Shown here one piece after another: positions 3,962 to 59,820 of a DNA stretch of 64,000 nucleotides (its first letter is position 1; each line of letters opens with the position of its first letter). Under the pieces are notes generated by a model. The model had not been told where the DNA came from. It saw nothing but the letters and a program-made list of their open reading frames with translations, and did no database searches. The translations under genes were made by a program, and so were the position numbers. Source of the stretch: Basidiobolus meristosporus CBS 931.73 (Eukaryota; Basidiobolomycota; Basidiobolomycetes; Basidiobolales; Basidiobolaceae); NCBI GenBank assembly GCA_002104905.1, contig MCFE01000342.1, positions 1 through 64,000 of the forward strand, given 5' to 3'.

Positions 3962-4255
3962 GTGATGACCATGCCACAAAAGAATACACAATGCACCCGC
4001 ACCCCAGTAGCCATGGTTGCCGAGTCTCCAGTGATCCTTTCCCCTCCCCCGCTCCCTCCAGCTACCTTTGCCAGCGATGTGTCAAGGAAAATGGATTACC
4101 ACGACGATGTGTCAACTGTAGATGCGCAATGGGTTCCCAAGATGCCTCGCAAATACAAGAAAAGCCGAGTACGCTATTTCGCCAGCTCGAATCATCAGCC
4201 CACAGAAAAGGAAGTGTATAATGGCGAAGAACTTCCTTCCATCAACAATCATTGA
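3962..4255 (+). CDS. Uncharacterised small protein, copy A (probably truncated)
   Basis: A 97-residue reading frame, proline-rich near the N-terminus (SPPPLPPATFASDV) with a basic stretch PRKYKKSRVRYF around residues 60-72. The paralogue at 7945-8349 is 134 residues. It continues with a C-terminal tail ending in LLAALHRDRLERSR, which this copy lacks because the frame diverges and stops after about residue 88. I do not recognise the family. The frame is strongly conserved between copies, including the basic block, which supports it being a real gene. This copy may be a truncated or non-functional paralogue. It is transcribed away from the lipase. Confidence 0.5.
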   Translation: MMTMPQKNTQCTRTPVAMVAESPVILSPPPLPPATFASDVSRKMDYHDDVSTVDAQWVPKMPRKYKKSRVRYFASSNHQPTEKEVYNGEELPSINNH

Positions 4256-5420: not shown

Positions 5421-5805
5421 GTGTCTCACTGAACACCCCTGCGTAGGCACTGAAGTCGGCAAATGATCTCATTCATCAGTGTGTTGTTTCCATTGCAACC
5501 ACAATTGCACTGATCCAGCTTCATCTTCAATAGTTAATCCACTGGAGTTTTATTAGCCAATGATATCGACACTCAAGGGGAACTTGATCATTACCCTTTG
5601 TTAGGGTCGACGGCACTCTTGAACATATCTGTTGGCAATCTCTGGAGTCTGAGTATCCAAGACTGGGGCGCCAAAGATGATTATGACCGAGAGAGCATTC
5701 CAATTTCCCAAATCGCGACCATGTTCGGAATCCTAGCTTTTGCCCCAATGCTGGCCTTTTCATGGATTACGACGATTCATGAACGGGTTCTGACAGGTCT
5801 TGCTA
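5421..5805. other. Gap, possible 5' remains of the subtilisin pseudogene
   Basis: There is an open stretch of 78 codons on minus at 5763-5527, but I cannot assign it. It sits where a subtilisin prodomain would be expected. A short part (about 5748-5760) is shared with the copy-A trace. Confidence 0.3.
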
Positions 5806-41405: not shown

Positions 41406-42309
41406 TTGTCAGATTGCATCTAGTGTCATAACATATGACCCATCTGGAAATCTGCTGTTTCTGTGTCTTGAGGCGTATGTTGAAGTCATCTTTTGCTGTG
41501 TGGTCTTACTTCTGTCACTGATAGCAGGGTAGACAATGTTTGTAAGGTACTCAAGCCGGTTCTTTAGCTTGTCTGTATTCAAACTTGCTAGCTCTGTACT
41601 CTGGTAGTCCCCAAAGTGGTTGTATCTTCTTCCAAACATCAAAGAAAATGGTGTTCATCCATGTAGAGCAGCAATCTTGGTATTGATAGCATACTGCACA
41701 GTGGGAATGTACTTGTCCCAATTCTTCTTTATACTTTTGATCAATTTTCCAATGATGTTCACTGAGGTCTGAGCATGTCTTTCAGCAAGTCCATTAGCTT
41801 TTGGATGATGTGGAGTGATCAGATGGTGATCAATAGTGCTATTGTGGCAGAGGGCCTTGATCACGTGATTTACAAATTCTTTTCCATTATCCAATTGAAT
41901 GACCTTAAGGAACCCAAAAAGGCAGAAGAGCTTGAATAGTGCTTGCGCAATAGTGGCACCATACTTGTCTGGGATAGCCTTGAGGAAGACAAAAGATGTG
42001 CAGAGATCCACAATTACAAAGCGGTAGTGATTACCTTCATCACTGGTGGTCAAAGGTCCAGCTAGATCAATTGCAATATGATCCATAGGAAGAGTTGCAT
42101 GGAGGGGACTCAAAGGGTGAAATCCATGGAGGCTGATATGGTAAAGTTGGAATTCTTTGCAAGACTTGACAAGTTCTAGGCAGTCAGCTTTGATATTTGG
42201 CAAGTAATATCCATCAGAGTGTAGCTTCTTCATAAATGTGTTGGCTCCAAAGTGTCCAGGCAGATGACTCCCCTGTATCAACATTTTCCTTTCATTGGTA
42301 TGTGGGATT
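41406..42309 (-). pseudogene. Gypsy-B integrase
   Basis: On minus from 42309: HLPGHFGANTF and CLELVKSC form the HHCC zinc site. The catalytic residues remain: MDHIAIDLAGP (first Asp), IQLDNGKEF (second Asp) and NGLAERHAQ (Glu). After one stop near 41652 the frame resumes with MMFGRRYNHFGDYQ and ends at 41409. Only that stop clearly breaks it. The preceding RNase H is separated from it by the copia insertion at 42310-44338. Confidence 0.85.
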
Positions 42310-42658
42310 TGTTGTAATTATTGAATTGTCACCTAAATATTCATGCTAACTTAGTCACATAGATCTTATTCTGTGATTAGCATTCTGTCCTGACTAGATT
42401 TCTTGTCGGGATTTACTTAGAATATTTTCACCAAATTGTCAGGTACCCAGATTATTATTTTTCTCAAAGTCGTCCAAAAGACCCCAAACTTTGCACACAT
42501 ATTCTTGGGACCTTCCTTAACAAACTCTACACGTTTGTTTCCTCTACTTTATCAAAAGTATAAATACTATACTTTTGATCAATAAATCTACAAGTGAATA
42601 ACATGTAAATCATCTAGTTCTCCACATCACTTCCAATACTCCTCAGAATATTGCAACA
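42310..42658 (+). repeat. Copia 5' LTR, divergent subfamily
   Basis: Ends cagaatattgcaaca and is followed by ggttatgagccccgagc. It is more similar to the minus LTR at 61503-61768 than to its partner at 43989. Confidence 0.8.
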
Positions 42659-43446
42659 GGTTATGAGCCCCGAGCTTGCTGTCCTCTTGGTGTCTACTAT
42701 GCTTTGGATCCTTTTCTGCTAGTCTGGAGAAAGACTTTCCGCACTATTGCTCTGCTAAGGTTAAAGAAGACTACCGCTGCTAAAGGACTATGTTTATGAG
42801 GATATTGCTGTGGAGAAGAAGGCCTTGCCTTTAAAAGATGCTTTCAGTAACTATCCAAGTTAGTTATGGAGAAGAGTCAATCAAACTGGCATGTAATTGT
42901 GTCAAGAAATATAGTATGTTGGTGCTCTACCACTACTGAAGAAAATTGCGTAATTCCAGCAATTGAGGGTCCAGATCTACAATGAAATATACTGCAATAT
43001 GTATTCATATGACCCCAATTGACTGTTAGACGAGCTCTTGGATAGGATATTATCCTGAATTGCAAAAAAAAAAAAAAATAGATCATTATTAAATGATTGC
43101 CGGAGGAGGATTTTACCAAAAATCTGTTGCCACTCAAAATACAGCTGAGAATGCAAATACTGGAGCTGTTAGCCGCCATTCTGGACTATCTACTGATGGA
43201 AAAAGATCTCAGAAACAAGCTTCCTGAATTGTAAGGATCCCAATGATATATAATACATATATATCCACCTGGAGTACGGATATGTACTACACAATCCATT
43301 AGAAGAATGCTATAATTGTATCAAGTGTTTTGATACTGAAACCAGTGTACCAGGAGCTAAATATGGAGCTGTTAGACGTGCTACCACTCTGTTTAAGTCT
43401 CAAAACAGTGGGAGAAAGTATTATACAAATTTAGCAAAATCAACTC
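42659..43446 (+). other. Non-coding interior of the copia element
   Basis: Primer-binding site, then broken sequence without gag or RT. It contains a run of 15 A at 43064-43078. Confidence 0.45.
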
Positions 43447-43977
43447 ATGAAGATTCTACCGCCAGCCAAAGGAGTGAAGCATATAATTGCAAGCCTGATT
43501 AGAGTATACAACCAAGCAACAGTTGGTCAGTACACAGCTAAGAGCCACTCAGAAGATACCACAGTATACACCTTTCTTTACTGTAAAGGAGCAATTTCAT
43601 GGAATTCAAGAAAGCAACCAACCGTAGCACTTTCTACTACAGAGGCAGAATATATGGCAGCCTGTGAGGCTACAAAGGAAGCAATGTGGTTAAGAAAGCT
43701 GTTTACAGATTTAGGCCTATGTCAAAAAACGCCTATTACTTTATTTCAAGATAATCAAGGATGTATACAATTAGGTAGAAATCCAACTTTTCATGCTAGA
43801 ACCAAGCACATAGATATTAGACATCATTTCATACGTGAAGCTATAGAGAGTAACTTAGTTAGATTAGTTTACTGTCCTACAGATGAAATGATTGCAGACA
43901 TATTTACCAAACCATTAGCTAGAGACAAGTTTGAATATCTTAGGTCAAAATTAGGACTAGTCAGTATGAACATTTAG
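43447..43977 (+). pseudogene. Copia RNase H C-terminus
   Basis: An open frame of 176 codons ending at the normal stop. ALSTTEAEYMAACEATKEAM, LFQDNQGCIQL, RTKHIDIRHHF and DEMIADIFTKPLA are the classic copia RNase H/tail motifs. The N-terminal part of pol is missing, so it cannot be functional on its own. The purine tract gagtgggag precedes the LTR. Confidence 0.85.
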
Positions 43978-43988
43978 CTGAGTGGGAG

Positions 43989-44338
43989 TGTTGTAAAAAA
44001 TTCGTATTTCCACCTAAATATTCACCTAACTTAGTCACTTAGATCATTACCTTCAAATCCTAGAAAATACTGACCAAATTCCTTGTCGGGATTTACTTAG
44101 AATATTTTCACCAAAATACCAGGTACCCAGAACATGAAAATTCTCAAAGTTGTCCAAACAGCCCCAAACTTTGCACACATGTTCTTGGGACCTTCCTTAA
44201 CCTATTCTACGTGTTTGTAATGCCAAGACCAGGTAAAAGTATAAATACCACTTTTACATTCAATAAATCATTAAGTGAAAACCACATAATCTACTTGTTC
44301 TCCCAATCACTTCCAATATCTCCAAGACTCTTACAACA
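43989..44338 (+). repeat. Copia 3' LTR
   Basis: 350 bp, TGTTGTAAAA...CTCTTACAACA. It is the reference for the other copia LTR copies at 25719, 27457 and 28167. Confidence 0.85.
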
Positions 44339-44343
44339 GGATT

Positions 44344-45260
44344 TTCCAGGATGCTGAATCCAGTTCAGGAACTTTATTGGAAGTTGTAGTGAGCTCACGG
44401 ATTATGTCAGTAATCACATGCCCCTCCCAAAATGAAGTTGGAAAAGTCTTGAAAGGTGGTCAGGTAGGATGCTGAGGATTCCTGGGCAATGTATAACTAT
44501 ATATTCATAATCAAGTAGAGTATCAAGCCAGTTGGTAAGCATTGGAGTCAGAGTCTTTTGAGTGTGGATATAGACAAGGGCTTGGTGGTTGGTATACAAG
44601 GTAACAGGGCTACCCCATAAGTACTGATGAAACTTCTTCAAGGCAAAGATTATGGCAAGTAGCTCCTTCTTGATGACAGAGTAGTTTCTCTCAGCAGGTT
44701 TTAGAGATCTGGCTTGAAAAGAGATCCAGTGAGGTGGATATTGGTCTTCATCCTGGTATAGGACAGCCCCTAACCCAACATTAGATGCATCCATTGCAAC
44801 AAAAAGGTCTTAGTAAAGCCTTGGTAGGATAGGGTGGGTGCCCGTGGGAGCAACTGGCAGAGTGACTCAAATGCTTGGTCATGAACCTTGTTCCAGGCTG
44901 AGGGAAGATCAGGACTATGGTGTAATGCATCCAAAGGGGCACTCAATGAGTACGTGAGAGGAATGTGTTCCCTGGAATAGTTGAATATTCCAAGATAATG
45001 TTGGAGCTGCTTAGCACTATTGGGTTTTGGCCATTCAGGAATATTGACCAGTTTGAAAGGATCAAGCTGGTGGCCATCTGGAGTGACAATGAATCCAAGT
45101 AGATTGATTTTGAGGCTGGCAAAGCTGCACTTTTCCGCATTAAGAATCAGGTCAGCAGCTGTCAGTCTATTTATTACATCAGTGACATGGGTTGCATGAT
45201 TGTCATGATTTGTGGAAAATATGATGACATCATCAACAAATACCAAAGCATATGGTGTGT
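44344..45260 (-). pseudogene. Gypsy-B RT C-terminal half and RNase H
   Basis: The minus frame 45246-44770 begins at the catalytic box (FVDDVIIFS, intact VDD) and runs through NLLGFIVTPDG. 44794-44414 is RNase H, with MDASNVGLGAVLYQDEDQ and SVIKKELLAIIFALKKFHQYL; a frameshift near 44780 joins them. It continues the RT N-terminal half that lies at 53099-53395, 8 kb away, beyond the nested insertions. Confidence 0.88.
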
Positions 45261-45332
45261 TGTGGTGGTGTAGAGGTACTCCTGGGAGAAGCTACACAAC
45301 TCAAGGTGTGTGAGGTGTCTGATGGGTGCAAT
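45261..45332 (-). repeat. Solo LTR, 3' part (split by Harbinger)
   Basis: Exact reverse complement of the last about 70 bp of the LTR at 49935-50738, ending CACCACCACA on minus. Together with 52364-53098 it makes 804 bp if the duplicated AAT is counted once, the same as the intact LTRs. Confidence 0.92.
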
Positions 45333-45515
45333 AGACTTGTTCCGTTGGATAGTGCCACATAGTGCCAGCCGGTTTATAGTGCCGGATCAATCTGGCACTC
45401 TACGGCACTATCTGGCACTATAATTTCTACCATGATGCCAGTGGTATGATACAGTTACTGGTAATTTTACTCAATCTTACTTATGTTGCTCAGAATAGTG
45501 CTTTCCTTGCTTTAT

Positions 45516-46400
45516 TTACTCTTCATAATGCTCCAGACACATTTCTCTCAGTGGATGTCTTCTTGTATGAACATACTGTGCATTGATAAGTATCTTAACT
45601 ATTTTACCTATTCTGCTGTTTTCTCCTATATATGACTTTCCTCTGTATTTACCTGCCAATATGCTGAATCTCTTCAGATATCCAAATGTGTGCTCTACCC
45701 TTACTCTGAAATGATTAAATATCTCATTGTAGAGCTTCTGCTTCCTGCTAAGCACACCATTCCTTGGCTTCCTATAAGCTGTAATACATCCTAATCTCTG
45801 ACAATCCTCTCCTATATAGGCCAAGTCTGCCATACATTTCTCCCCTCTACTGAATTCAGGATGATTCTCTACCCAGAGTGCATTGTCAAGCCTACTTCCA
45901 GCAAATGGCCCACTAAACCAGATGATGTTACCCTCAATGTCAGACAGTGCTTGAAACTTCACACAGTGTGCCTTGTACTTGCCAGAATAAAAGTGCCTCT
46001 GCCCTCTAGAAGATCTGTTAATCCTCACTGGGAAGGTATCCAAAATACTCCTGATATGGAACCTGTTGCTGAACACTCTGGGATATGGAAGTCTATTGGA
46101 GCTTCTGAACCTAGTATTCCAAGCTTGCTCTAAGTCATTCATACCCTCTGCAAGGTGGTTCTCCATTGCTGTCAGCTGGGAATGAAAGCTTCTAGGACTT
46201 TTGTTGCCATGGATGGTGGGATGAAACCTTGTAGGGCAATAGTTCTTGTAATAGCAGAGAAGCTTAACAAGGGATCTCCTTGAGTAGATTGGGGTTGATG
46301 GTCCACAGTACTTGGAATAGATCTCCTCCAGTGTGTCAAAAGGAAATCCAGTGGTAGTGATGGGATTGATGAGAAAAGACCATTCAGATGAGTAAGTCAT
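45516..46400 (-). CDS. PIF/Harbinger transposase (DDE_Tnp_4)
   Basis: An uninterrupted 294-residue frame. The RNase H-like core is visible. SILDTFPVRI (about 130) holds the first Asp. FYSGKYKAHCVKFQALSD and GPFAGSRLDNALW follow. MADLAYIG (about 207) holds the second Asp and VRVEHTFGYLKR (about 243) the Glu. This is the HARBI1-like order. Family members are usually 330-450 residues, so an upstream exon may be missing. It acts with the Myb-like or DNA-binding partner encoded by the divergent second gene. It is likely a functional or nearly functional transposase. Copy 2 at 54312 keeps only its N-terminal third. Confidence 0.85.
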   Translation of the reverse strand: MTYSSEWSFLINPITTTGFPFDTLEEIYSKYCGPSTPIYSRRSLVKLLCYYKNYCPTRFHPTIHGNKSPRSFHSQLTAMENHLAEGMNDLEQAWNTRFRSSNRLPYPRVFSNRFHIRSILDTFPVRINRSSRGQRHFYSGKYKAHCVKFQALSDIEGNIIWFSGPFAGSRLDNALWVENHPEFSRGEKCMADLAYIGEDCQRLGCITAYRKPRNGVLSRKQKLYNEIFNHFRVRVEHTFGYLKRFSILAGKYRGKSYIGENSRIGKIVKILINAQYVHTRRHPLREMCLEHYEE

Positions 46401-46852
46401 ATTAAAATTGATGGATGATCATATGGAGGCGGTTTGAATTGATTCGGCGCGATCTGCGTTATTTATCTGATTTTTAACACATTATGGTTAAATCTCCATC
46501 AATTGCCATGTATCCCATCATTGTGTTGCAAAAATCATCCGCAAACAATGCCTTGGTACTTTTATTGATGCTTTAATCATAGGTCTATAATCAAATAGGA
46601 AATCTGCAATTGATGTGATCTGATCCATGTCAACGCGATCCAAGATGCATCATGCATAATATATGGAAAATTCAACAATCACTTTAGTTTTCATATATAT
46701 TTCATATAAGACCAGGTTGATGCCAATATACTGCTGTATAAGTATCCAAATCCGTTGCTATGGTCCCCATACCAAGCCTCAACTCATCTTTAGTACAACC
46801 CAGACAAAACCCATCCCCCAGCTCACAAGCGCGGTCCGGACCGGAAAAGTCA
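46401..46852. promoter_or_regulatory. Divergent spacer between the two Harbinger genes
   Basis: About 450 bp, AT-rich, conserved at 54654-55105 in copy 2, including ctccatcaattgccatg and ggaaatctgcaattgatg. A bidirectional promoter is the likely role. Confidence 0.45.
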
Positions 46853-49800
46853 ATGTCGGATCCGTTTGAGTTCTTGCCAAATGATTTTAGTATGGCCCAA
46901 GTGTCTATGATGAGCCTTCATACAGATATTTGGGCACTACTGATTAATTTAGCAGAACTAGATACCTCAGAGAGTCGACAAAGATGGAAGAATTTGAGTA
47001 GAAAGCTGTGGCATGAGTTCTACATCAAGATGCCAGCCAATGTATGTAAAAAGATATATAACAAGACAAGTATTGAAATCAAGAATGAGCTGAGAGTGAG
47101 GGGATTTGACAAGGAAGCCGCTGTGGTAGGGTAAACATACCTCCCACAGACAAGTTTATTCATATAGTCATTATGATATACTTATCCATATTTTATCTTA
47201 TCAGTATTATCCCATTCTTCTTTTGCCCATATTATCAGTATTATCCCCATATGATGTTTACCCTGATTAGTTATTAGCATTAGTTATCCCAGATGTTATT
47301 CAGCTTTGTGATCAGTAGATGTATCTATATAAGGCAAGTACCCGCGTCAGTACCCGTGACACATGACCTAGGTCTGTGTTACCATCTCTACCATTTCAAT
47401 ACCATATATGGTATTTCTATGTTGCACAGGTTTCAGACTACTGATTCCTGATTGGTTGAGAGTGCTGTGCCTTTTAGAACCTTCCAGGACATTCTTGGCA
47501 TATTTTTAGCTCATAGTGATGTCATCAAGAATTCCACTGATACCTAGAATCTTCTAGAACCTTGTCATTAGTAATCACTTGGCAATCAGGAAAAGTATTT
47601 AAGGGAAAGCAATCCCTCATCAATAAATCATCCCTTCTATCAGTAACACTTCTACCTTATTGATTAGCAGTTGATCACTGCACCTGCCTTCAACAGTACA
47701 TCTAAGACCTGCCATCAAGGAGCTTTTCAGGGTAGTGCACAAGACACACAGAGGCCTTTGGAGACACTTGGAGCACCTAGGGAGCTAAAGAAGCAGGAGC
47801 TTTTACCATAGTGACATATTGACAAAGACACCAGCAGTTTAGACACAGAGGTTATTGCACCCATCAGACACCTCACACACCTTGAGTTGTGTAGCTTCTC
47901 CCAGGAGTACCTCTACACCACCACATATTTGGCACCCAACGTGGGGGGTTTGACTGAACTGCCCCTAGAAGACTTAAGAAAGAACAAATTATCAAGACCA
48001 TGGATCTACCTTTACCAGGAATGCAAGGAACTCCTTTCTTTGATGGAACCAAAGTTAAAGCTTTCATCAAGAGGTGGGAGCTTTTCTGCAGAGCCCACAA
48101 AATACCTGAGGCCATTATGGCTGAAGAGATGCCCCCCTACAGCACTGATGAGATCATGCTCTCATTATATGAAAGAAATGATCTGCTGACAAATTGGACC
48201 CTCTTGAAGAGCTACTTGATTGATGAATATGGAGAGAGACAAGTTGACTACACACTTCAAGACTTGGAGAACTTTGCTTATAGCAAGTTTAAGCTGCTAC
48301 CATTGAAAGAATACTTGAGTGGCCTTGAGCAAATTGGAGAGTCACTGAAAGCCCAAGGCATTATCACTGATCTGACTTTATCTGCCTATCTGCTCAGAGC
48401 ACTACCAGAAGGCCTGGTGAGAAGGATTGAAAACAATCCTACTGTGAAAGCTATGAGTTCACTGCCTGCATTTCAGTTAGCTAAGCAGATTCTACTTGCC
48501 CCTGAAGAAACCTCACCCATCAGAAAGCTTCTTTCAAGCCCAGAACAAAACCAAGATAGCCAAGACATACTTAATCCCAGCAATCAAAGCACTCAAATTC
48601 AGGAGCTGACACAGCAACTAGAGAAACTCTCTTTGCTACTTGCCAGCAAAGCATATGGTCAGGAGCCAGTAGAGAAAGAAGTCAAATATACATGCATGTG
48701 GTGTGACTCTGCCAACCATTCCAAGAGAAATTGCCAAGAGCTTCAGTCATTACTATCCACAGGTGATGTCCTATATAATCCTCAGGGATACATAGTCAGT
48801 AAGCATGGTGACAAATTATCCACAGCATTTGGACAAGGAGGAATGAGAGTTCACTACAAGCAAGTCACCTCTCATACAAGAAAGGTTCACCTCCATGAAG
48901 AAGAAGATCCTGACTACTTTGATCCAGCTGAAGTTCTGAACTTTGACTATGAGGACCCCAGAGAGGCCCAAGATCATATAGCTTCAATTTATGCTTCAAA
49001 GAGACACCATCCTGAAAAAATGGCTAATCTAGGCCCAGCAACAAAAGTACCAAGATGTGAGCCAGAAGTTGTGATTGAGAAGAAAGCATCACCCCCATTA
49101 ATTCTACAAGAGTCTGCCAAGACCAACAACTACCACATGCAGCCTAAAGTCAAGCAAAATGGTACCCCAGAGGCTCTGACAAGTCATATACTAGGAAGCA
49201 ACATATCAATCAAGGTTGGAGAGCTACTCAGTGTATCACCATCTGTAAGAAAGACTCTGGATGAGCATATCAGAATAAGAAAGCATCCAATTGAAGCAAC
49301 TCAAGGCAACCAGGTCAGGACAGTTCAAGGAAGCCAAGATATCAGTAAGCTGCATCAAAGCCAGAAACACTACTACTCAGAGGCAACTGCAACAACTACA
49401 GGAACTGTGCATAATCAAGAAATCCTATGTCATATAGACAGTGGATCTGAGATATGTGTGATGCCTTTGGAGGCTTGGAAACAACTACCATGCAAAGACC
49501 TATTGCCCATAGACACCAATATCAATTGGAGCATGAAGGATGCCAACTCAGGGCAATCAAAGCTTTTAGGAATTATTCACAGCTTCCCTCTCATCATTGA
49601 AGGAATACCCCATGAGATCCCAGTATTCATTTGTGCAAAGGCTAACTTTGAATTACTTCTTGGAAGACCATGGGAGGTAAAAGCAAGAGCAACTGCAGTG
49701 AACTACCCAGATGGTTCAGCATGGTATACTATATACTCAGAGAGCCCAGGACTAACAGCAACCTTCTGTGGTGTGGACTCAAACAATATCCGATCAATGA

Positions 49801-51620
49801 CATCATGTAGATTTCTATCTCAAGAAAGGACAGGTGGCTTCATTGAGGAAGACTGAGAGAGCACTTTGTTCTCCAAACTTACAGTGGTTAGCTAAAAAGT
49901 TCCCTGAAACTTTTTAGCTCAAGTGGGGGGTGGATGTGGTAGGGTAAACATACCTCCCACAGACAAGTTTATTCATATAGTCATTATGATATACTTATCC
50001 ATATTTTATCTTATCAGTATTATCCCATTCTTCTTTTGCCCATATTATCAGTATTATCCCCATATGATGTTTACCCTGATTAGTTATTAGCATTAGTTAT
50101 CCCAGATGTTATTCAGCTTTGTGATCAGTAGATGTATCTATATAAGGCAAGTACCCGCGTCAGTACCCGTGACACATGACCTAGGTCTGTGTTACCATCT
50201 CTACCATTTCAATACCATATATGGTATTTCTATGTTGCACAGGTTTCAGACTACTGATTCCTGATTGGTTGAGAGTGCTGTGCCTTTTAGAACCTTCCAG
50301 GACATTCTTGGCATATTTTTAGCTCATAGTGATGTCATCAAGAATTCCACTGATACCTAGAATCTTCTAGAACCTTGTCATTAGTAATCACTTGGCAATC
50401 AGGAAAAGTATTTAAGGGAAAGCAATCCCTCATCAATAAATCATCCCTTCTATCAGTAACACTTCTACCTTATTGATTAGCAGTTGATCACTGCACCTGC
50501 CTTCAACAGTACATCTAAGACCTGCCATCAAGGAGCTTTTCAGGGTAGTGCACAAGACACACAGAGGCCTTTGGAGACACTTGGAGCACCTAGGGAGCTA
50601 AAGAAGCAGGAGCTTTTACCATAGTGACATATTGACAAAGACACCAGCAGTTTAGACACAGAGGTTATTGCACCCATCAGACACCTCACACACCTTGAGT
50701 TGTGTAGCTTCTCCCAGGAGTACCTCTACACCACCACACCGCGCGGGAACAATTTTGCGCGCAATTTGCACAGTACAGGCCGGACGCGTCCGTTCGTGCC
50801 TCAACTTTGGGAACTAAAGAGATTTTGAATGAGTTTTTGCCTCAAATGACTAATGTACTACGTGATATATTAGTAGAGCTAAGTGGCTTCCGAGAGCAAT
50901 ATACACAGGACTCATCCAGGCAACAGCTCCAAAGTATCAGACAGAGGGTAAGTGAATACCTTGAGGAATCAGATGGAGCTTCAGGAGGAAGAATACAGAC
51001 CGTGAGCAACATCGTCCAGATTGCACCAGCACGCCTTGCTGGATTCCCTACCATCTCTTGCAACCACAGCGCACCGGCGCACGTCAGTCCAGACCACGCC
51101 AACACCCTTTACCAGAACGCCCCGCGTCAAGTCAACGCGCGCGCTTCAGAGCAAAACTACCAGAACTCGCCAAACTGCTCATTTAGACACAAGTCCATTG
51201 GAGCGGACCGAGTTGTGTCAACATGCGGCATCACATCAAACTCAGCCAAGGGCCATCTCAACACGTCTAGGCACGCCTGCGCGTGCAGTTTTGCCTGACC
51301 ATCAGCGAGTTACTTCTGGTGAACTGACTGATGATGACCAACATGAAGTGACTCAACCACCGGAGCCCTTGGCAAGTAAAAGAACGCGTCAGCGTGTGGC
51401 ACTACAGGCCGGTACAGTTGGTTCAGTTGGTTCAGTCGGAGCAATTCAGCGCGGCCAAGCTGCAGCATTGCACTCATCAACTAGGAGGCAAAATACTGAC
51501 TACAAATACACAAGTAGCCAAGATGATAGTCAGCCAGGAAGTAGTATAGGTGTGCAAAGTGAGTCACTACCAAATGCTTCAGTAGTAATCCCTGTGAGAA
51601 AAAAACCTAGGAGAAGATGA
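46853..51620 (+). CDS. Harbinger second gene, split by the nested retrotransposon
   Basis: Exon parts 46853-47121, then (after the LTR element and one TSD copy) from about 50743 to 50947, then 51030-51620. An 82-bp intron with GTAAGT and CACCAG is proposed. Reading is continuous across the excised element. It starts MSDPFEFLPNDFSM, with a helical W/L-rich region typical of Harbinger partner proteins (RQRWKNLSRKLWHEF). Next is a coiled segment, LQSIRQRVSEYLEES. The C-terminal part is Thr/Gln/Arg-rich with a terminal RKKPRRR, a plausible nuclear signal. An upstream in-frame ATG at 46760 is possible. It is broken by the insertion, so non-functional in this copy. A decayed paralogue is at 55105-55800. 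Confidence 0.6.
47122..47925 (+). repeat. 5' LTR of the Gag-PR element
   Basis: 804 bp. It contains a tatataagg-like TATA box at about 47330 and AATAAATCATCC near 47625. Ends ACACCACCACA. Confidence 0.93.
47930..47946 (+). other. Primer-binding site, tRNA-Lys type
   Basis: TGGCACCCAACGTGGGG sits four bases after the LTR. It differs by one base from the TGGCGCCCAACGTGGGG site that pairs with the 3' end of a tRNA-Lys. The tRNA identity is inferred. Confidence 0.65.
48000..49856 (+). CDS. Gag-protease polyprotein of the non-autonomous LTR element
   Basis: 618 residues, no interruption. Residues about 10-170 are a Retrotrans_gag-like capsid region (FFDGTKVKAFIKRWELFC, then YSKFKLLPLKEYLSGLEQI). 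A zinc knuckle CMWCDSANHSKRNC (CX2CX4HX4C) lies at about 231-244. A retropepsin follows: ILCHIDSGSEICVMP at about 477-491, with its DSG active site, and the C-terminal FELLLGRPW at about 547. The frame stops about 65 residues after that, with no RT. Within the 1,857 bases I count one CpG. The start at 48000 is the first ATG after the PBS in this frame. Expected role: package the element's RNA and cleave Gag, with reverse transcription and integration supplied in trans. Confidence 0.9.
   Translation: MDLPLPGMQGTPFFDGTKVKAFIKRWELFCRAHKIPEAIMAEEMPPYSTDEIMLSLYERNDLLTNWTLLKSYLIDEYGERQVDYTLQDLENFAYSKFKLLPLKEYLSGLEQIGESLKAQGIITDLTLSAYLLRALPEGLVRRIENNPTVKAMSSLPAFQLAKQILLAPEETSPIRKLLSSPEQNQDSQDILNPSNQSTQIQELTQQLEKLSLLLASKAYGQEPVEKEVKYTCMWCDSANHSKRNCQELQSLLSTGDVLYNPQGYIVSKHGDKLSTAFGQGGMRVHYKQVTSHTRKVHLHEEEDPDYFDPAEVLNFDYEDPREAQDHIASIYASKRHHPEKMANLGPATKVPRCEPEVVIEKKASPPLILQESAKTNNYHMQPKVKQNGTPEALTSHILGSNISIKVGELLSVSPSVRKTLDEHIRIRKHPIEATQGNQVRTVQGSQDISKLHQSQKHYYSEATATTTGTVHNQEILCHIDSGSEICVMPLEAWKQLPCKDLLPIDTNINWSMKDANSGQSKLLGIIHSFPLIIEGIPHEIPVFICAKANFELLLGRPWEVKARATAVNYPDGSAWYTIYSESPGLTATFCGVDSNNIRSMTSCRFLSQERTGGFIEED
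49921..49934 (+). other. Polypurine tract before the 3' LTR
   Basis: aagtggggggtgga lies immediately before the right LTR, where plus-strand synthesis would be primed. Confidence 0.7.
49935..50738 (+). repeat. 3' LTR of the Gag-PR element
   Basis: 804 bp, matching 47122-47925 throughout by eye. Confidence 0.93.
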
Positions 51621-52363
51621 TGCGATCGCTTTGAATCGCTCACATTTGTAATGATCCCGACAACCCTTTTTTTTTGCGATCCAAATTGAGCCATTGCAAA
51701 TCAGTGATCATCAAATTTTTGATATAAGTAATATCAAGGTTGTCTCACATTTGAGACAGAACCCCTATAAATAAACATCCTGCATATATATACGTCATCT
51801 GTAATACCAGTGCAGCTATTGGATCTTTTTTGCACCTACACGATTGCTTGCGTGCTAGCTATGACACCTTGCCCAATCACTAGGATCAGGGATTTACTTG
51901 CTCAATGGGCAAAATGGGATATTTGATGGCAAATCAGGTAGCTTTTTCAGTAGTCAATGAGCCAATTGGGGGCTGCCAGCTTCAGGATACTTTTGGACCA
52001 ATTAACCACTAAGATACCGTCCAATTGGAGTGAGGGTAACCAAAATGGTAAGTATCAGTGTAGTTTATAGTGTGATACACATTTATTTCCATTTACATTA
52101 AAGAAACATATCCAAATACCGGATTTTACCTGCCATTATAGCGGTATCTGATCGCGCACATGATGCAAGCATTACGAGTTGGCGCGATCATCCGCGCCAA
52201 CCTCATCGTGTCAGACTGTGCCATAGTGTGCAAGATTGTCCCGCATAGTGCAAAATTGTCCAAGAACAATCCTGCCTTCTGGTAGCTATAATATCGCGCC
52301 CGATTGTTCTTTGCAACCGCAGATCGCGCCGCACACCCTGGCACGGTACAATGGAACAAGTCT
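51621..52363. repeat. Harbinger right-end region with terminal inverted repeat
   Basis: Non-coding. It includes an AATAAA (51768) downstream of the second gene and ends ggaacaagtct at 52363. Homologous ends are at 55830-56343 (same strand) and 39140-39645 (reverse). Confidence 0.85.
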
Positions 52364-53098
52364 AATAACCTCTGTGTCCAAACTGCTGGTGTCTTTGTCA
52401 ATATGTCACTATGGTAAAAGCTCCTGCTTCTCTAGCTTCCTAGGTGCTCCAAGTGTCTCCAAAGGCCTCTGTTTGTCTTGTGCACTACCCTGAAAAGCTC
52501 CTTGATGGCAGGTCTGAGATGTACTGTTGAAGACAGGTGCAGTGATCAACTGCTAATCAATAAGGGAGAAGTGTTACTGATAGAAGGGATGATTTATTGA
52601 TGAGGGATTGCCTTCCCTTAAATACTTTTCCTGATTGCCAAGTGATTACTAATGACAAGGCTCTAGAATATTCTAGGCATCAGTGGATATTCTTGATGAC
52701 ATCACTATGAGCTAAAATATGCCAAGAATGTCCTGGAAGGTTCTAAAAGGCACAGCACATCCAACCAATCAGGAATCAGTAGTCTGAGACCTGTGCAACA
52801 TAGAAATACCATATATGGTATTGAAATATTAGGGATGGTAACACAGAACTAGGTCATGTGTCACAGGTACTGACGCGGGTACCTGTCTTATGTAGATTCA
52901 TATACTGATCACAAAGCTGAATAACATCTGGGATAACTAATGCTAATAACTAATCAGGGTAAACATCATATGGGGATAATACTGATAATATGGGCAAAAG
53001 AAGAATGGGATAATACTGATAAGATAAAATATGGATAAGTATATCTTAATGACTATATGAATAAACTTGTCTGTGGGAGGTATGTTAACCCTACCACA
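52364..53098 (-). repeat. Solo LTR, 5' part (same family as the Gag-PR element)
   Basis: On minus it starts TGTGGTAGGGTTAACATACC at 53098 and runs 735 bp to the Harbinger junction. It differs from the 47122 LTR at scattered positions, so it is older. The flanks on both sides are RT halves of gypsy-B. Confidence 0.92.
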
Positions 53099-54311
53099 GC
53101 ATTCTTGAGTATTATAGTCATGACCCTCTGGAACTTGCTGGTCAGTGTCTTTAGGCCAAAGGGAGCTCCCTGAAGCATCCATTGCATATTATTAAAAGTA
53201 AAGGCAGCCTTATGCTGATGATCAGGATGGATCTGGAATTGGTGATACGCATCCTTCCAGTCCAATTTGGTAAGTACTTTTGCACCTGATAGTGAGGAAA
53301 ATATATCCTGGATTCTTGGAATTTGAAATTTATCATCTTGGAGAAGCTTGTTCAGAGGTCTAGGGTCCAAACAGGGTCTCTTCAGAGTAAGATTTCCATC
53401 AGCATCTTTCTTAGGTGCAAGTGCAAAGGGCTGTTAAATGTTGTGTTGACAGGGGCTTGAGTGATAATTCCATTGTCAGCCCACTTTTGGACTATTTCAT
53501 CAACCAAGTGTTGACAAGAATGCGGAATTTGGTATTGCCTCCTCCATGTTGACTCACCAGGTGGGGCTTCTATTGTAACAATGGATTCTGGAGTAGTGCA
53601 GAAACAATTCCTGGGAATGGCTTGGTTTCTTTCTATGGCCAGCTGAATTTCCAATTTGATTGATTGAGAATACGCTTGAAAAGCTGGGGTTGACTCCTCT
53701 GCTTCCAGATGGGGAGAGTTAATCTGTGGAATGTGATTCATTCTGGGTGTCTGAGACTTTGTGATTCCAGGATATAAAACTGGTAGTCCACCTATGTGAA
53801 AGACAAGTTTGGTAAAGGTGTCTAGACCAATGACTACCTGAGGTCCATCTGGAATGTCAATAAATTCCATCTGATGGATTTTAGTTAATGAACCACAGTG
53901 TATGCTGATTGGGTTGGTGATACCAATTCTTGGGGCTGAGAGGTCCTCAGCCACAAGCATGATTTTTCCTGATTGCTTTTCCATTGCCAATCTGAGTTCT
54001 TTGACCATATTAGGTGATACAATAGAGTTGGATGATCCAGTATCCAGTAGTGCTAGATATGATTAGCCATTGAGTTTGAGTAGCACCTCTATAGCTTTTA
54101 GCTGCGCAATTGGTTGCTACTTTTCTTGAACAGTTGCAATTTTAGCCGGAATTTCAAAGAGGTTGTGATAATCTTGAACTGTAAGTTTTTCATATGCTTC
54201 CTCATACCCAGTCATATCATTAGTTGAATGATCAGCTAGAATCTGAGCAAATTTTGCCAATGGCGTAGAGTTCTTCTCAGGATAGGCAGGTGATCTATGT
54301 CCCATCTTTCT
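53099..54311 (-). pseudogene. Gypsy-B protease and RT N-terminal half
   Basis: On minus: a zinc-knuckle-like segment with GCRKMGHRSPAYPEK near 54300. Next is a retropepsin, LALLDTGSSNSIVSP (about 54040), and GPQVVIGLDTFTKLVF (about 53835). RT follows with QWADNG-like and FNSPLHLHLRK. 53370-53100 carries MDPRPLNKLLQDDKFQIPRI, KLDWKDAYHQFQIHP and QGAPFGL. The RT stops before its catalytic box at the solo LTR and resumes at 45260. A few stops are present. The Gag part is mostly missing, cut at about 54311 by Harbinger copy 2. Confidence 0.85.
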
Positions 54312-54329
54312 GCAACCTGTAGCTGAACA

Positions 54330-54653
54330 CACTGGGATATGGAAGTCTATTGGAGCTACTAAACCTAGTACTCCAAGCTTGCTCTAAGTCATTCATACCC
54401 TCTGCAAGGTGGTTCTCCATTGCTGTCAGCTGCAAATGAAGCTTCTAGGACTTTTGTTGCCATGGATGGTGGGATGAAGCCTTGTAGGGCAATAGTTCTT
54501 GTAATAGCAGAGAAGCTTAACAAGGGATCTCCTTGAGGAGATTGGGGTAGATGGACCACAGTACTTGGTATAGATCTCCTCTAGTGTCTGAACAGGAAAT
54601 CCAGTGGTAGTGATTTGATTAATGAGAACAGACAATTTAGATGAGTAAGTCAT
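54330..54653 (-). pseudogene. Harbinger transposase N-terminal fragment
   Basis: The frame from 54653 reads MTYSSKLSVLINQITTTGFP and GPSTPISSRRSLVKLLCYYK, then a frameshift. Homology continues to about 54330. The catalytic core is absent. Confidence 0.85.
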
Positions 54654-55104
54654 TTTGAATTGGAAAGGATTGGGCTGAGTTTCTTTGATTCAATTTAGCA
54701 CAATCAGCTTTATTTATTTAATTTTCCATGCATTATGATTGAATCTCCATCAATTGCCATGTTTCCCATCATTATGTTGCAAAAATCATCCTCAAACAAT
54801 GACTTAGTATTTTTATTGATGTTTTACTCACAGGTCTATAATCAAATAGGAAATCTGCAATTGATGTGATTTGATCCGTGTCAATGCAATCCAAGATGCA
54901 TCATGCATAATATATGGAAAATTCAACAATCACATTAGTTTTCATATATATTTCATAAAAGACCAGGTTGATGCCAATACACCACTGTATAAGTATTCAA
55001 ATCCATCACTATGGTCACTATACCAAGTCTCAACTCAGCTTTAGTTCAGCCCAGACAAAACCCATCCCCCAGCTCACAAGCACAGTCTGGACCGGAAAGG
55101 CAAT

Positions 55105-55800
55105 GTTGTATCCATTTGAGTTCTTGCCAAATGATTTTAGTATGGCCCAAACGTCTACAATGAGCATTCATACAGATATTTGGGCACTACACATTAATCT
55201 AGCGGAACTAGATACCTAGGAGAGTCAACAGAGATGAAAGAATCTGAGTAGAAAGCTGTGGCATGAGTTCTACATCAAGATGTCAGTGATGCATATAAGA
55301 AGATATATAATAGAACAAGTATTCAAGTCAAGAATGAGCTGAGAGTGAGGGGACTTGATGAGGAAGCCATGCAGGAACAATTTTGCGCGCAATTTGTACA
55401 GTATGGGCTGGACATGTCTGTTTGTGCCTTGACTTTGGGAACCTAAGAGATTTTGAATGAGTTTTTGCCTCAAATGACTTATGTATTATGTGATATATTA
55501 GTAGAACTAAGTGGCTTCTGCAAGCAATATACACAGCACTCATACAGGCAACAGTTGCAAAGTATTAGACGGAGGGTAAGTAAATACCTTGAGGAATCAA
55601 ATGGTGGCTTCAAGAGGAGGAATACAGACTGCAAGCAACATTCTCTAGATAGCACCAGCATGCCTTGCTTGATTCCTTACAATCCCTTGCAACTTCAGTG
55701 TGCCAGCGCATGTTAGTCCACACTATGCCAAGACCCTTCACAATAGCACCTTAAACACCCTGCATATGTATACATCATCTGTGGCACCAGTGCAGCCATT
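55105..55800 (+). pseudogene. Decayed Harbinger second gene
   Basis: Pieces FEFLPNDFSMAQ (55117) and MNEFLPQMTYVLCDILVELS (55453) match copy 1. They are separated by stops such as TAG at 55217-55219. Many CpG positions of copy 1 read TG or CA here. Confidence 0.8.
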
Positions 55801-56343
55801 GGATTTGATTTGCACCCAAACAAATGGTAGCATGATAGCATTGACACCTTGTCCAATCACTAGGATCAAGGATTTACTTGCTAAATGGGCAAAATGGGAT
55901 ATTTGATGGCAAATCAGGTAGCTTGTGTATTGGTCAAAGAGCCAATTGGGGGCTGAAGGCTCCAGGATACTTTTGGACCAATTAACCACTGAGATACCAT
56001 CCAATTGGAGTGATAGTAACCAAAATGGTAAGTATCAGTGTATTTTGTAGTGTGATAAGCATTTATTTCCATTTCCATTAAAGAAACATATCCAAATACC
56101 AGATTTTACCTACCATAATAGCGGTATCCAATTGCACATGTGATGTAAACATTACAAGTGGGCACAATTGTTTGTGCCAACCTCATTGTGTCAGATTGTG
56201 TCATAATGTGCAAGATTGTCCCACATGGTGCAAAATTGTCCAAGAGCAATTCTGCCTACTAGTAGCTACAATATTACACCCAATTGTTCTTAGAGACTGT
56301 GGATTATGCCACATCCCCTGGCATGGTACAATGGAACAAGTCT

Positions 56344-56627
56344 AATATATTCCTTCTCCCTGATGGATTCTAGCCCACTTATAGGTGCACTATAGCTCTT
56401 GTTTGGGTGAATTCTATATTAAATGGTGTAGAAATTGGCTCATGACTAAGAGAAATCTGGCATACCTTAGTAGTGCTTTGCAGATCAAAATTAGTTGCTT
56501 GTTGTACCTAACCCAACTTTGCATTATCAATTACCCACACACTGGGACTGCTTAGCTTCTTAATGCCATAGGCATAGGTGTCCCATGTGCACATCTGTCC
56601 TCAGTATTTTCAAACTCATCCTGGCTG
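56344..56627 (-). other. Probable 3' flank of the CACTA fragment
   Basis: Sequence left of the gypsy-A insertion that would be contiguous with 60941-61021. No clear coding region is seen. Confidence 0.35.
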
Positions 56628-56996
56628 TGTTACAAGTCTTGGTATAAGAGTTGTAGAGGAATAGGGAGTTTAGCTAGTATTGTATTTACTAAAACTTGAA
56701 CCAATTTTTATTGAGGTTCCAGCAGCTCCTTAAATACATTTTGCCAGATCAATTGCAGACTAATTGTATTTCCTAATGTAGGTTGTGGCTGATGACTCAT
56801 TTGATTGCATCAACATCACCCAATAAGATCCTACTTAATAAATCTATTTCTGTCTGATAAGGATCAGCTGATTCATTTGCTGACTAATGCTACTGACTTC
56901 ATAGATAATACTGATACACTGATAACCTAAACATATACTAATTGATTTTGACTAAATACTGATCTAACATAAACCTTCAAGCGGCAGATCATAACA
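56628..56996 (-). repeat. Gypsy-A 3' LTR
   Basis: On minus it begins TGTTATGATCTGCCGCTTG and ends GACTTGTAACA. Confidence 0.88.
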
Positions 56997-57006
56997 TTCT
57001 CCCCTA

Positions 57007-57790
57007 CTAAAGTTGAGAGGGTTCTCCTGAGTCTCTTTTCTTGTGATACCAATATCTTGATGGTTCAGTATTATCAGCAAGTCTTGCAAGCTTGAGTCTG
57101 TCCCTATGCACTAAGTCTTCCTGGATATTGCCTTGTTTGTCCACCAGTTGGTAAGTTGCAAATGGACATTCTCTGATGATCTTGAATGGACCTGTCCATT
57201 GTGGCTCAAACTTCTTCCAAGTGTTGTTTCTTGGCAATACAAAGTTCCCAACTGTCAATGCTTCTGGTGCTATAGTCTTATCAAATCTCTGCTTCATTTT
57301 TTCTGCACTTTGAGATACTTTGGTCCGTGCCTCTTGACGTCTTTGTTCCAGTTGCTGGTGACTACTTGGCTGACTAAGTTCATCTTCTAAGGCATCTGTA
57401 AGCTTGGGTTGTGTGAGATCTCCTGGAATCCTTGGTTCACATCCATACACTAAGTAAAATGGTAATTGCTGGGTGGTGTTGTGTACTCTGACTCTGCATG
57501 CAAAGAGTACTTGGTCTATATACTCATCCCATCTACTGACAACTCCATTTGCATACTTGGTCAGCATTTTTCCAAATAATCCATTAAACCGCTCAGTTAC
57601 TCCATTAGTTCTGGGATGAAATGCCAAGGTTTTCAAGTGTCTGATCTACTGCATTTCCAGGTAAGCCTCTAATGTCTTTGCCATGAGGTTTGCTCCTCTA
57701 TCAGATAAGATCTCCACAGGGCATCCAAACTTCATCAGGATCTCATGGTAAATGAAACTTGCAACTTTTTGTTCACTGGCTATTGGTACA
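57007..57790 (-). pseudogene. Gypsy-A integrase C-terminal half
   Basis: The frame 57636-57007 starts near the third catalytic motif, TNGVTERFNGLFGKML (Glu intact), and continues with QLPFYLVYGCEP. It ends with a GPFKIIRECPFATYQLVD segment and a C-terminal tail. The integrase core upstream (to 57790) is broken by stops. Confidence 0.85.
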
Positions 57791-57792
57791 GC

Positions 57793-58341
57793 TTAAGCAA
57801 CTGGCCATTTAGTGGCATGGTCAATTGCTACTAGGATCCAATGGTTGCATTTCCTGGTAGCTGGCAGTCTTCCAATAAAATCAATTTGCCATCTTTCAAA
57901 TGGTCTTACAGGCTCCAAGGGAAAGAGTTTGGCAATTCTCTGTGATTGTTCTGCTGAGTTCAGTTTCTTGGATTCAAAGGCAACAGGGTAGTCCTTCCCC
58001 TTGTGTTCTTGGCTCAGCACTCCACCAATTGCATAATCTGAAGCATCTGTGCACAGAGTGAACTCTTTTCTGAAGTCTGGTATTCTTAAGCTTGGCAGCT
58101 TAGCAAGCTCATTCTTGAGCGTCTGGAAGGCGGTCTCACAAGCTATGCCCCACTGGTAGGTATTGTCTTTCTTGAGGATATCAGTTAAAGGGGCTGCAAT
58201 ACTTGCAAGTGACTTGACAAATCTGCAACAATAGGAAACCATTCCAAGAAACGATCTGAGCTCTGATATGCTATGGGGCTGCTTCAACTTCTTGATTACT
58301 TCCACCTTCTTGGGGTCTAAGGTTACTCCTGTGCTAGTCAC
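57793..58341 (-). pseudogene. Gypsy-A RT tail / RNase H fused in frame to integrase core
   Basis: 182 codons read through from the RT thumb (SFLGMVSYCCRFVKSLASI) into RNase H (FTLCTDASDYAIGGVLSQEH, then FESKKLNSAEQ). The frame then jumps to integrase (RPFERWQIDFIGRLPATRKC). The plus-strand relative at 61769-63757 still has about 650 bp between these points. So this is an internal deletion that kept the frame. Confidence 0.85.
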
Positions 58342-58404
58342 TATGTGTCCCAGATATTCTACATGTTCCTTGAGGAATTCACACTTGGGTAGCTTGCCAT
58401 AAAG

Positions 58405-59025
58405 CTAGTTCTCTCTTAGCTTCTTCAAGACCTTTGCAATGTGCACTAAGTGATCCTCTTCTGTCTTGCTGTATATCAGTATATCATCTAGGTGGATTAT
58501 GACAAACTTGTCTAAGTACTCCTGGAGGACAGTCTGCATCAGGGTCATGAAAGTTGCAAGGGCATTGGTGAGACCAAACCACATGACTAAGTACTTGTAA
58601 TGTCCATATCTGGTCCTAAATGCTGTCTTAGGAATATCTTTTGGTTTCACCCTAATTTGGTTGTATCCTGACATGAGGTCAATCTTGCTGAAAATGGTGG
58701 CTCCATTAAGTTGGTCCAAAAGCTCATCTATCCAAGGTATGGGGTACTTATTCTTGACGGTAACTGAGTTCCGGGCTCTGTAGTCAATGCACATCCTAAG
58801 TGTTCCATCCTTCTTTTTCACAAAAAGCACTGGTACTCCCCAGGGTGACTTGCTGGGCCAGATGTATCCTTGCTCCAATAGCTGATCAATTTGTCTCTTC
58901 ATTTCCTCTAATTCCAATGGACTCATTCTGTAAGATGTCTTGCTCACTGGAGGGCTATCTCCTGTGTCAATGGCATGATCCACCTCTCTGACTGGTGGTA
59001 GGCTTACAAGCTCATCTGGAAACAC
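58405..59025 (-). pseudogene. Gypsy-A reverse transcriptase
   Basis: 207 open codons. [52 protein letters not shown] and the catalytic [10 protein letters not shown] box (Asp-Asp intact) are visible. The conserved FGLTNAP motif reads [11 protein letters not shown] stop after KKLREN (TAG at about 58406) separates it from the thumb region. Much of this domain looks intact compared with other copies. Confidence 0.88.
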
Positions 59026-59028
59026 GTC

Positions 59029-59820
59029 CTAATATTTCTTCAAGAGAGTCTGGACCTGCTGGGGTGCTGGGGTAGAGGAATCCTCCTGTAAAACCGCCAT
59101 GAGGAACATCTGAGTACCTTTTCTAGGTACTCTACAGAACTGGGTCTTGCTAAGTTCACTTGTCTCACACATACTGGAATTGACCAAGTTAAAATCCAGC
59201 CTGGCAGGTAATTGCTCATAGGACTTGTTGTCTTTTTGGATCTGCGTAGCATGGGTTCTCCAGTTGATTGATGGATTACAACAAAATAGCCAGGTTTTTC
59301 CATGTACAAGGTCAAACTTGCAGTTCCCAAATATATAAGCCTGTAGGTCTTCTTCATAGTCATTGATCTTCATTCTTACTGGCTGGGTAATACGGTTGAT
59401 TATGTGGGAGTTCCCATCAGCTGTGGAGACTGAAGTTGATTTGGTAGGTTCTGAGTTGATTCCAGCTTTCAAAGCATATTGCTCTGACATGTACTCATGC
59501 AATGCTCCTGAGTCAATCATGATCTTGGCAGGTACTCCATTGATTACTCCATTCAAGTACAATAACTTCCCTGAGTTTGAAGTCATTTGGGACAAGTACT
59601 CTTCCATCACATAAAAGGTGAGTTCTGAGTCTTCTTCAAGCTCATCTTCCACATTACTGTGTTCATGGGACTCAATATGGTTGAAGGTTCTTGTTGGCTG
59701 GTGTCCATTTCTTTTCTGAGGGCAGTACTTTGCAATATGTCCCTGCTGGTGGCAATTGAAGCAAAGTCCTCTCTTCTTGCATTCTTCTGCATAGCATCTA
59801 TTTCCGTTGGTACTGCTTCT
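59029..59820 (-). pseudogene. Gypsy-A zinc knuckle and protease
   Basis: A zinc knuckle CFNCHQQGHIAKYC is readable at about 59720-59765, in a frame different from Gag's last part. 59652-59029 is open, with a retropepsin site, KIMIDSGALHEYMS (DSG). Confidence 0.82.

What the first reader, a model, noticed from the sequence alone, without database searches (positions are those of the whole stretch)
44339..54311. Four-level transposon nest that can be unfolded base by base
Gypsy-B RT (53099-54311 and 44344-45260) is split by a solo LTR (45261-45332 plus 52364-53098). The LTR is split by a Harbinger (45333-52363), and that by a complete LTR element (47122-50738). The two LTR halves sum to 735+69=804 bp, exactly the intact LTR length. 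RT reads straight from before the catalytic box to the box once the insert is removed. This gives a relative order of activity for four families, and the LTR family was active both before and after the Harbinger.
Basis: seen in the sequence. Interest (0 to 1): 0.9.

Follow-up and report, generated by a model that had tools for sequence, protein, structure and literature searches.

The report
Transposon nest with CpG-seeking layer
In a gut fungus, transposons have jumped into transposons four layers deep, two of the insertions are missing from a second copy of the locus, and the family that jumped in twice appears to land only where DNA has a C followed by a G, which is rarely reported for this kind of element.

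Summary
Gypsy relatives run unbroken across the solo-LTR site in 28 of 28 loci held. The Harbinger has 11-bp TIRs and an AAT duplication; the inner LTR element has identical 804-bp LTRs and a CCGC duplication. A second contig, C297, is collinear over its whole 11.7 kb (18 differences).

Corrections: three families, not four; the inner element lacks reverse transcriptase and integrase; 4 extra bases sit at the gypsy/LTR junction.

Beyond the claim: the 804-bp LTR family lands on CpG. Of 36 insertions read at both ends, 32 have identical 4-bp duplications, all NCGN; three differ by C/T at the CpG, and one (C424) is probably a tandem whose right end is internal. Flanks are CpG-poor; a control LTR family shows 0 of 20. 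The nest is ordinary; near-absolute CpG targeting by a fungal LTR element is the interesting part.

The parts
53099..54311 (-). gypsy-B, protease and first part of RT
   Evidence: Pfam Asp_protease_2 and RVT_1 profile positions 2-140; abuts a truncated second Harbinger at 54311
44339..45260 (-). gypsy-B, rest of RT (from the catalytic box) and RNase H
   Evidence: RVT_1 positions 148-205 and RT_RNaseH; abuts 53099 in 28 of 28 other loci held
41655..42309 (-). gypsy-B integrase part, beyond the 2,029-bp insert
   Evidence: Pfam rve and Integrase_H2C2; contiguous with 44339 in C297. In 28 other loci: 3 overlap by exactly 5 bases, 20 have a 12-base gap where the integrase-side match stops 17 bases short (again 5 bases less), 5 had no integrase-side match in the stretch held
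45257..45260 (.). left copy of the solo-LTR target duplication, GTGT
   Evidence: right copy is GCAT
53099..53102 (.). right copy of the solo-LTR target duplication, GCAT
45261..45332 (-). solo LTR, one end (72 bp)
   Evidence: 100% to the inner LTRs
52364..53098 (-). solo LTR, remainder (735 bp)
   Evidence: 96.2% to the inner LTRs, 24 mismatches and 4 gap openings
45333..52363 (.). PIF/Harbinger-type DNA transposon (3,410 bp without the inner element); TIRs 45333-45343 and 52353-52363 (AGACTTGTTCC); AAT duplication at 45330-45332 and 52364-52366
   Evidence: 40 scored matches to each end in the genome, window included (capped lists)
45516..46418 (-). Harbinger transposase reading frame (300 aa)
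   Evidence: Pfam DDE_Tnp_4, E 1.9e-21
46742..51298 (+). second Harbinger reading frame, split by the inner element in this copy; a 311-aa stop-to-stop frame in the C297 copy
   Evidence: no Pfam match
47122..50738 (+). inner non-autonomous LTR retrotransposon; LTRs 47122-47925 and 49935-50738; duplication CCGC at 47118-47121 and 50739-50742
   Evidence: 0 of 804 LTR differences; single CCGC and no element in C297
47958..49856 (+). gag-protease-like frame (632 aa) of the inner element; no RT, RNase H or integrase found
   Evidence: only sub-threshold Pfam matches, DUF4100 and Asp_protease
42310..44338 (+). fifth insertion into gypsy-B: chimera of two copia-like families, 42310-43566 from one and 43567-44338 from the other; GGATT duplication at 42305-42309 and 44339-44343
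   Evidence: absent from C297

Best explanation
A gypsy element (gypsy-B) was hit, inside its RT gene, by a member of an 804-bp-LTR family that is now a solo LTR. A PIF/Harbinger transposon inserted into that LTR by cut-and-paste with a 3-bp duplication. After two haplotypes of the fungus had separated, a young copy of the same LTR family inserted into the Harbinger's second gene on one haplotype only. On that haplotype a chimeric copia-like element also inserted into gypsy-B, in unknown order. The LTR family's integration machinery selects a CpG as the centre of its 4-bp target, so each insertion duplicates NCGN. CpG is hypermutable here, which would explain why the old solo LTR now shows GTGT/GCAT: an original GCGT decayed to TG on one side and to CA on the other. 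Shown: the junctions, the empty sites, the difference between the two copies of the locus, and the CpG at the targets read. Inferred: that the two copies are haplotypes, that the specificity lies in the integrase complex supplied by an unidentified autonomous partner, and that the solo-LTR target was GCGT.
For: Junctions and LTR identity. C297 is collinear from end to end, carries solo LTR plus Harbinger, and lacks the inner element and the 2,029-bp insert. Gypsy relatives contiguous, 28 of 28 held. Harbinger ends and 3-bp duplications, 10 of 12 copies; in the scripted tally of 11 copies without C397, 9 of 11 paired ends match against 25 of 110 mismatched pairs. CpG: 26 full-length insertions with both ends read, 23 identical duplications, 23 of 23 with central CG; mismatched pairs agree in 65 of 650. 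10 solo-LTR candidates, 9 identical, 9 of 9 with CG; 4 further copies with one readable end, 4 of 4 CG. Flanks outside the duplication: CpG 20 of 2,463 dinucleotides in 35 insertions. Control LTR family: 0 of 20 flanks with CG at those positions. C297 carries one CCGC, so the CpG was there before insertion. Hypermutability: 10 of 18 differences between the two copies lie in a CpG that one copy has and the other has as TpG or CpA.
Against: The nest's own solo LTR has CG on neither side, and its GCGT origin is inferred; of 28 gypsy relatives none shows GCGT there (26 GCAT, one ACAT, one GCCT). Four of 36 duplications are not identical. Three (C617, C429, C357) differ by C/T at the CpG; the fourth, C424 (GCGT/TCCA), has on its right the sequence that precedes an LTR inside this element (compare), so it is probably a tandem copy without a true right end. 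C2, C431 and C58 share flanking sequence, so they may be hits in copies of one repeated site and are not fully independent. The sample was drawn from capped lists ranked by similarity to the inner copy: 29 of the 39 other internal regions scored and 10 solo candidates; older copies were not surveyed. Only one empty site of this family was seen. C297 could be a recent duplication rather than an allele.
Confidence: 0.9

Rival explanations
1. The nest is an assembly artefact: repeats of the same families were joined wrongly.
For: The pieces are high-copy repeats; no reads were available.
Against: The junctions carry the duplications their families leave elsewhere, and an independent contig shows the same four solo-LTR and Harbinger junctions plus two exact empty sites.
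Confidence: 0.03
2. C297 is a recent duplicate of the nest elsewhere in the genome, not the other allele.
For: Nothing unique anchors C297: it is 11,735 bp of sequence that matches the window's transposon part only. A unique gene stretch of the window (12001-14000) has no second near-identical copy (next best 68-72%), so there the assembly holds one haplotype.
Against: C297 is collinear with the window from end to end, with no foreign flank. Basidiobolus ranarum is reported as at least diploid from allelic variation (PMC3281927, abstract and passages).
Confidence: 0.2
3. The CG is not a target choice: either it belongs to the element's ends, or insertions survive only at CpG.
For: CG occurs on both sides in 32 of 36 insertions and on at least one side in 36 of 36.
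Against: The outer two bases of the duplication vary (8 different oriented duplications among 23) and match between the two sides; the one empty site seen already has CCGC; selection would have to remove nearly every insertion outside the roughly 1% of dinucleotides that are CpG.
Confidence: 0.05
4. The solo LTR was never a simple insertion in gypsy-B but a product of ectopic recombination, which is why its duplication does not match.
For: GTGT and GCAT match at only 2 of 4 bases.
Against: The gypsy flanks are collinear with uninterrupted relatives and exceed them by 4 bases, the family's duplication length; both mismatches are of the CpG-decay kind.
Confidence: 0.07

Closest known systems
Errantivirus-type sequence-specific integration in Drosophila (gypsy, ZAM, Idefix subgroups: TATA, CGCG, ATAT)
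   Same: A 4-bp target with a strong, near-palindromic core; CGCG contains CpG (PMC5408687, abstract and passages)
   Different: Fungal host; an element without RT; the invariant core is only CG, the outer bases are free although mostly G or C. The review calls such specificity exclusive to errantiviruses and their derivatives. Shared ancestry was not tested.
PIF/Harbinger DNA transposons
   Same: DDE_Tnp_4 transposase, terminal inverted repeats, 3-bp duplication, second open frame (family description in PMC9179366, passages)
   Different: Duplications are ATT/AAT/AGT/AAA rather than the TWA usually quoted (recalled); the second protein has no recognisable Myb-like domain
Nested LTR retrotransposons of plants
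   Same: Young elements inside older ones; nesting is common (PMC6911290, abstract)
   Different: A DNA transposon forms a middle layer, and two insertions are resolved against an empty second copy of the locus
Tandem LTR elements entering as one insertion, discussed with cDNA recombination
   Same: A complex LTR structure with a single target duplication, polymorphic between genomes (PMC11899658, passages)
   Different: Here two families with LTRs 77% identical are joined, at a junction found once

Membership tests
PIF/Harbinger | DDE_Tnp_4 transposase | tested here: met
   PF13359 E 1.9e-21
PIF/Harbinger | terminal inverted repeats with a 3-bp target duplication | tested here: met
   11-bp TIR; 10 of 12 copies with identical 3-bp duplications
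PIF/Harbinger | second gene coding for a Myb-like protein | tested here: inconclusive
   311-aa frame present in C297; no Pfam match; structure model of part of it uninformative, mean pLDDT 52
Ty3/gypsy (gypsy-B) | order protease, RT, RNase H, integrase | tested here: met
   pieces searched apart, in that order on the minus strand
LTR retrotransposon (804-bp family) | TG...CA LTRs flanked by a short target duplication | tested here: met
LTR retrotransposon (804-bp family) | own reverse transcriptase and integrase (autonomy) | tested here: not met
   the only large frame between the LTRs matches no RT, RNase H or integrase model
Errantivirus-type site-specific elements | sequence-specific 4-bp target | tested here: met
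   NCGN in 32 of 32 identical duplications, out of 36 insertions read at both ends
Errantivirus-type site-specific elements | errantivirus-like RT/integrase, with env or the derived two-ORF layout | tested here: not met
   one gag-protease frame, no pol match and no room for env; works like, not filed as a member
Ty1/copia (insert 42310-44338) | copia RT/RNase H and LTRs with a 5-bp duplication | tested here: inconclusive
   GGATT duplication and LTR ends; copia motifs recognised by eye in a relative (recalled motifs); no Pfam RNase H match to 43435-43977

The most novel reading that the evidence does not exclude
The 804-bp LTR family uses CpG, perhaps methylated CpG, as its landing mark. In a genome where transposon DNA has lost most CpG, surviving CpGs there would lie mainly in young repeats, so the family would home onto recently arrived transposons and bury itself in them. 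That would be a safe-haven strategy written at dinucleotide level, and the same CpG decay would erase the evidence over time.
Probability: 0.25. Interest if true: 0.8.

Novelty: new variant of a known kind. Interest (0 to 1): 0.5.

Why it matters
The nest by itself is ordinary. Its value is that two of its insertions are absent from a second copy of the locus, so their targets can be read before and after. That led to a near-absolute CpG requirement in a fungal LTR family, whereas a review describes sequence-specific integration as exclusive to errantiviruses and their derivatives (PMC5408687, abstract and passages). If the CpG is read in its methylated form, it would tie transposon targeting to DNA methylation in a lineage usually described as low in 5mC (PMC8298701, abstract and passages).

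Tried and rejected
Rejected: the TA or TTA reading of the Harbinger duplication (first tried on the flanks; paired flanks show that the TIR begins AGACTTG and the duplication is 3 bp). L006 was not used as a pair because its two end matches lie on opposite strands. Rejected: a rust fungus as host (my first guess from genome size; one search gave Basidiobolus meristosporus at 99%). Rejected: that 42310-44338 is a normal copia copy; its two LTRs are 77% identical although its insertion is absent from C297.

Led nowhere: protein search with the gag-protease frame (no hit at 1e-3 among 7,998 scored candidates); transposase search (two proteins without names); structure of part of the second Harbinger protein. 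The autonomous partner of the 804-bp family was not found: a DNA search of the internal region gave 40 scored copies of that region, window included, and no further search for the partner was made. Literature: ten searches. One search (retrotransposon, integration site preference, CpG dinucleotide, target site duplication; at least 3 terms) found 57 papers; none of the 12 listed titles is about CpG-directed LTR integration. That is not proof of absence. Papers opened: passages or outline only.
Full report
Where it is. A dehydrogenase-like protein of the window (195-1199, minus strand) is 99% identical to one of Basidiobolus meristosporus CBS 931.73, and the genome held is 89.0 Mb in 1,311 contigs. 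The finding lies in the transposon-rich right part of the window; the left 24.4 kb is gene-like (GC 50%, CpG 4.9% of dinucleotides, against GC 41% and CpG 0.6% on the right).

Layer 1, gypsy-B. On the minus strand, protease and the first part of RT (53099-54311) are followed across the insert by the rest of RT and RNase H (44339-45260). Searched apart, the two RT pieces match RVT_1 positions 2-140 and 148-205. In all 28 other gypsy loci held (of 38 other places matched) the two flanks abut. The window has 4 bases more than its relatives at this point.

Layer 2, solo LTR. 45261-45332 and 52364-53098 match the inner element's LTR end to end (100% on the short side; 96.2% over the rest, 24 mismatches and 4 gap openings). 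The flanks are GTGT and GCAT, in the window and in C297 alike.

Layer 3, Harbinger. 45333-52363 begins AGACTTGTTCC and ends GGAACAAGTCT, flanked by AAT on both sides. Among 12 copies (window included) 10 have identical 3-bp duplications, C397 being read by eye; C708 (ACT/AAT) and C668 (AGT/AAT) do not match. In the scripted tally of 11 copies without C397, 9 matched, against 25 of 110 mismatched pairs. The transposase frame matches DDE_Tnp_4. A second, truncated Harbinger at 54311-56347 also runs through the inner insertion point without the element.

Layer 4, inner LTR element. 47122-50738 has 804-bp LTRs without a single difference and a CCGC duplication. Its one large frame (632 aa) gives only weak matches to DUF4100 and an aspartyl protease, and no RT or integrase, so it must be moved by another element's enzymes (inference). 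39 other places with this internal region, at 98-100% identity, were scored (40 with the window, of 124 candidates).

The empty copy. Contig C297 (11,735 bp) matches the window from 42252 to 59641 throughout, except that it lacks 47122-50738 plus one CCGC, and 42310-44338 plus one GGATT. Outside these there are 18 differences in about 11.7 kb. It contains the solo LTR and the Harbinger with the same flanks. So those two predate the split of the two copies, and the other two insertions most simply follow it. In C297 the second Harbinger frame is open for 311 aa; in the window the inner element splits it. On the left C297 reaches only 53 bases past the GGATT site. That C297 is an allele rather than a duplicate is likely but not proven. 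Allelic variation in Basidiobolus ranarum has been read as at least diploid (PMC3281927, abstract and passages).

A fifth insertion. 42310-44338 sits in gypsy-B between RNase H and integrase, with GGATT on both sides. Its first 1,257 bases match 39 other scored places, at 98-99% and to the same end point except C17 (stops at 1,039), C1141 (1,252) and C635 (92%) (40 of 4,582 candidates were scored). Bases 43575-44338 match another family at up to about 100% (40 of 3,794 scored). The junction between the two occurs once in the genome with up to 3 mismatches allowed. Its 5' and 3' LTRs are 77% identical. Ordinary reverse transcription makes two identical LTRs (established knowledge). The simplest reading is that two different cDNAs recombined before or during integration, or that each supplied one end; this is inference. 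Conversion after insertion cannot be excluded.

The CpG target. The duplications of nine other full-length copies suggested a pattern, so 20 further full-length candidates and 10 solo-LTR candidates were read. Ten other internal regions, among them the tandem pair of C235, were not read. Of the 20, 16 had both ends by the script and 4 only one. With the nine and the window copy that makes 26 full-length insertions with both ends: 23 identical duplications, all with CG in the middle, and three not identical: TTGG/TCGG (C617), CTGT/CCGT (C429) and GCGT/TCCA (C424). The right-hand sequence of C424 is the reverse complement of the stretch that precedes the 3' LTR inside this element (compare), so C424 is probably a tandem and has no true right end there. 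The 10 solo candidates gave 9 identical, all with CG, and one CTGT/CCGT (C357). The four one-ended copies all show CG. Mismatched pairs agree in 65 of 650. The outer bases vary, mostly G or C. The flanks outside the duplication are CpG-poor, 20 of 2,463 dinucleotides in 35 insertions (C424 included, window copy not), unlike the gene-like part of the window and like its transposon part. As control, 0 of 20 flanks of the second copia-like family have CG at the same positions, and 0 of 20 have any CG in the first five bases; one of these 20 (L187) seems to run into element sequence and may not be a true flank. C297 had CCGC before insertion. Three copies (C2, C431, C58) share flanks and may not be independent.

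Why the old solo LTR looks odd. Of the 18 differences between the two copies of the locus, 16 are transitions and 10 fall in a CpG that the other copy has as TpG or CpA, the usual sign of methylated CpG decay (established knowledge; methylation was not measured). The three non-identical duplications with two true ends all differ by C/T at the CpG. GTGT/GCAT is what GCGT gives when one side decays on one strand and the other side on the other. This is inference; of the 28 gypsy relatives 26 read GCAT there, one ACAT and one GCCT.

How it compares. Nesting itself is common (PMC6911290, abstract). Sequence-specific LTR integration is described as exclusive to errantiviruses and their derivatives, with TATA, CGCG and ATAT targets (PMC5408687, abstract and passages). 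Early-diverging fungi are described as low in 5mC (PMC8298701 and PMC13297926, passages), although Phycomyces is said to mark repeats with 5mC. The CpG depletion and CpG-type changes seen here suggest that Basidiobolus transposons are or were methylated (inference).

Verdict. Observation confirmed; interpretation partly supported. The nest is a good example of a known kind. The CpG-directed LTR family is the part worth following.

Noticed in passing
window 42310-44338: Insert with a perfect GGATT duplication, absent from C297, whose two LTRs are only 77% identical; it joins two copia-like families at a junction found once in the genome.
   Followed up: partly
L044 (C297:1-10000) and L096 (C297:9900-11735) against window 42252-59641: Second copy of the locus lacking two insertions; 18 differences, 10 of them between CpG and TpG/CpA.
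   Followed up: yes
window 24401-64000 compared with 1-24400: CpG is strongly depleted in the transposon part (0.6% of dinucleotides, observed/expected 0.14) and much less in the gene part (4.9%, 0.78).
   Followed up: partly
window 54311-56347: A second Harbinger, lacking its transposase-side end, abuts gypsy-B at 54311; the junction was not analysed.
   Followed up: no
L093 (C535:246400-250960); C235:3607-9232; C424:147620-151276: Two LTR families, including the 804-bp one, show tandem LTR-internal-LTR-internal arrangements sharing an LTR (C424 inferred from its right-hand sequence).
   Followed up: no
Harbinger family, e.g. C1, C515, C577, C203, C358, C1148: Target duplications are ATT/AAT/AGT/AAA, not the TWA usually quoted for PIF/Harbinger (recalled).
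   Followed up: partly
window 1827-4218 and 5799-8198: Tandem duplicate of a class 3 lipase gene region, 94.5% identical over 2.4 kb.
   Followed up: no
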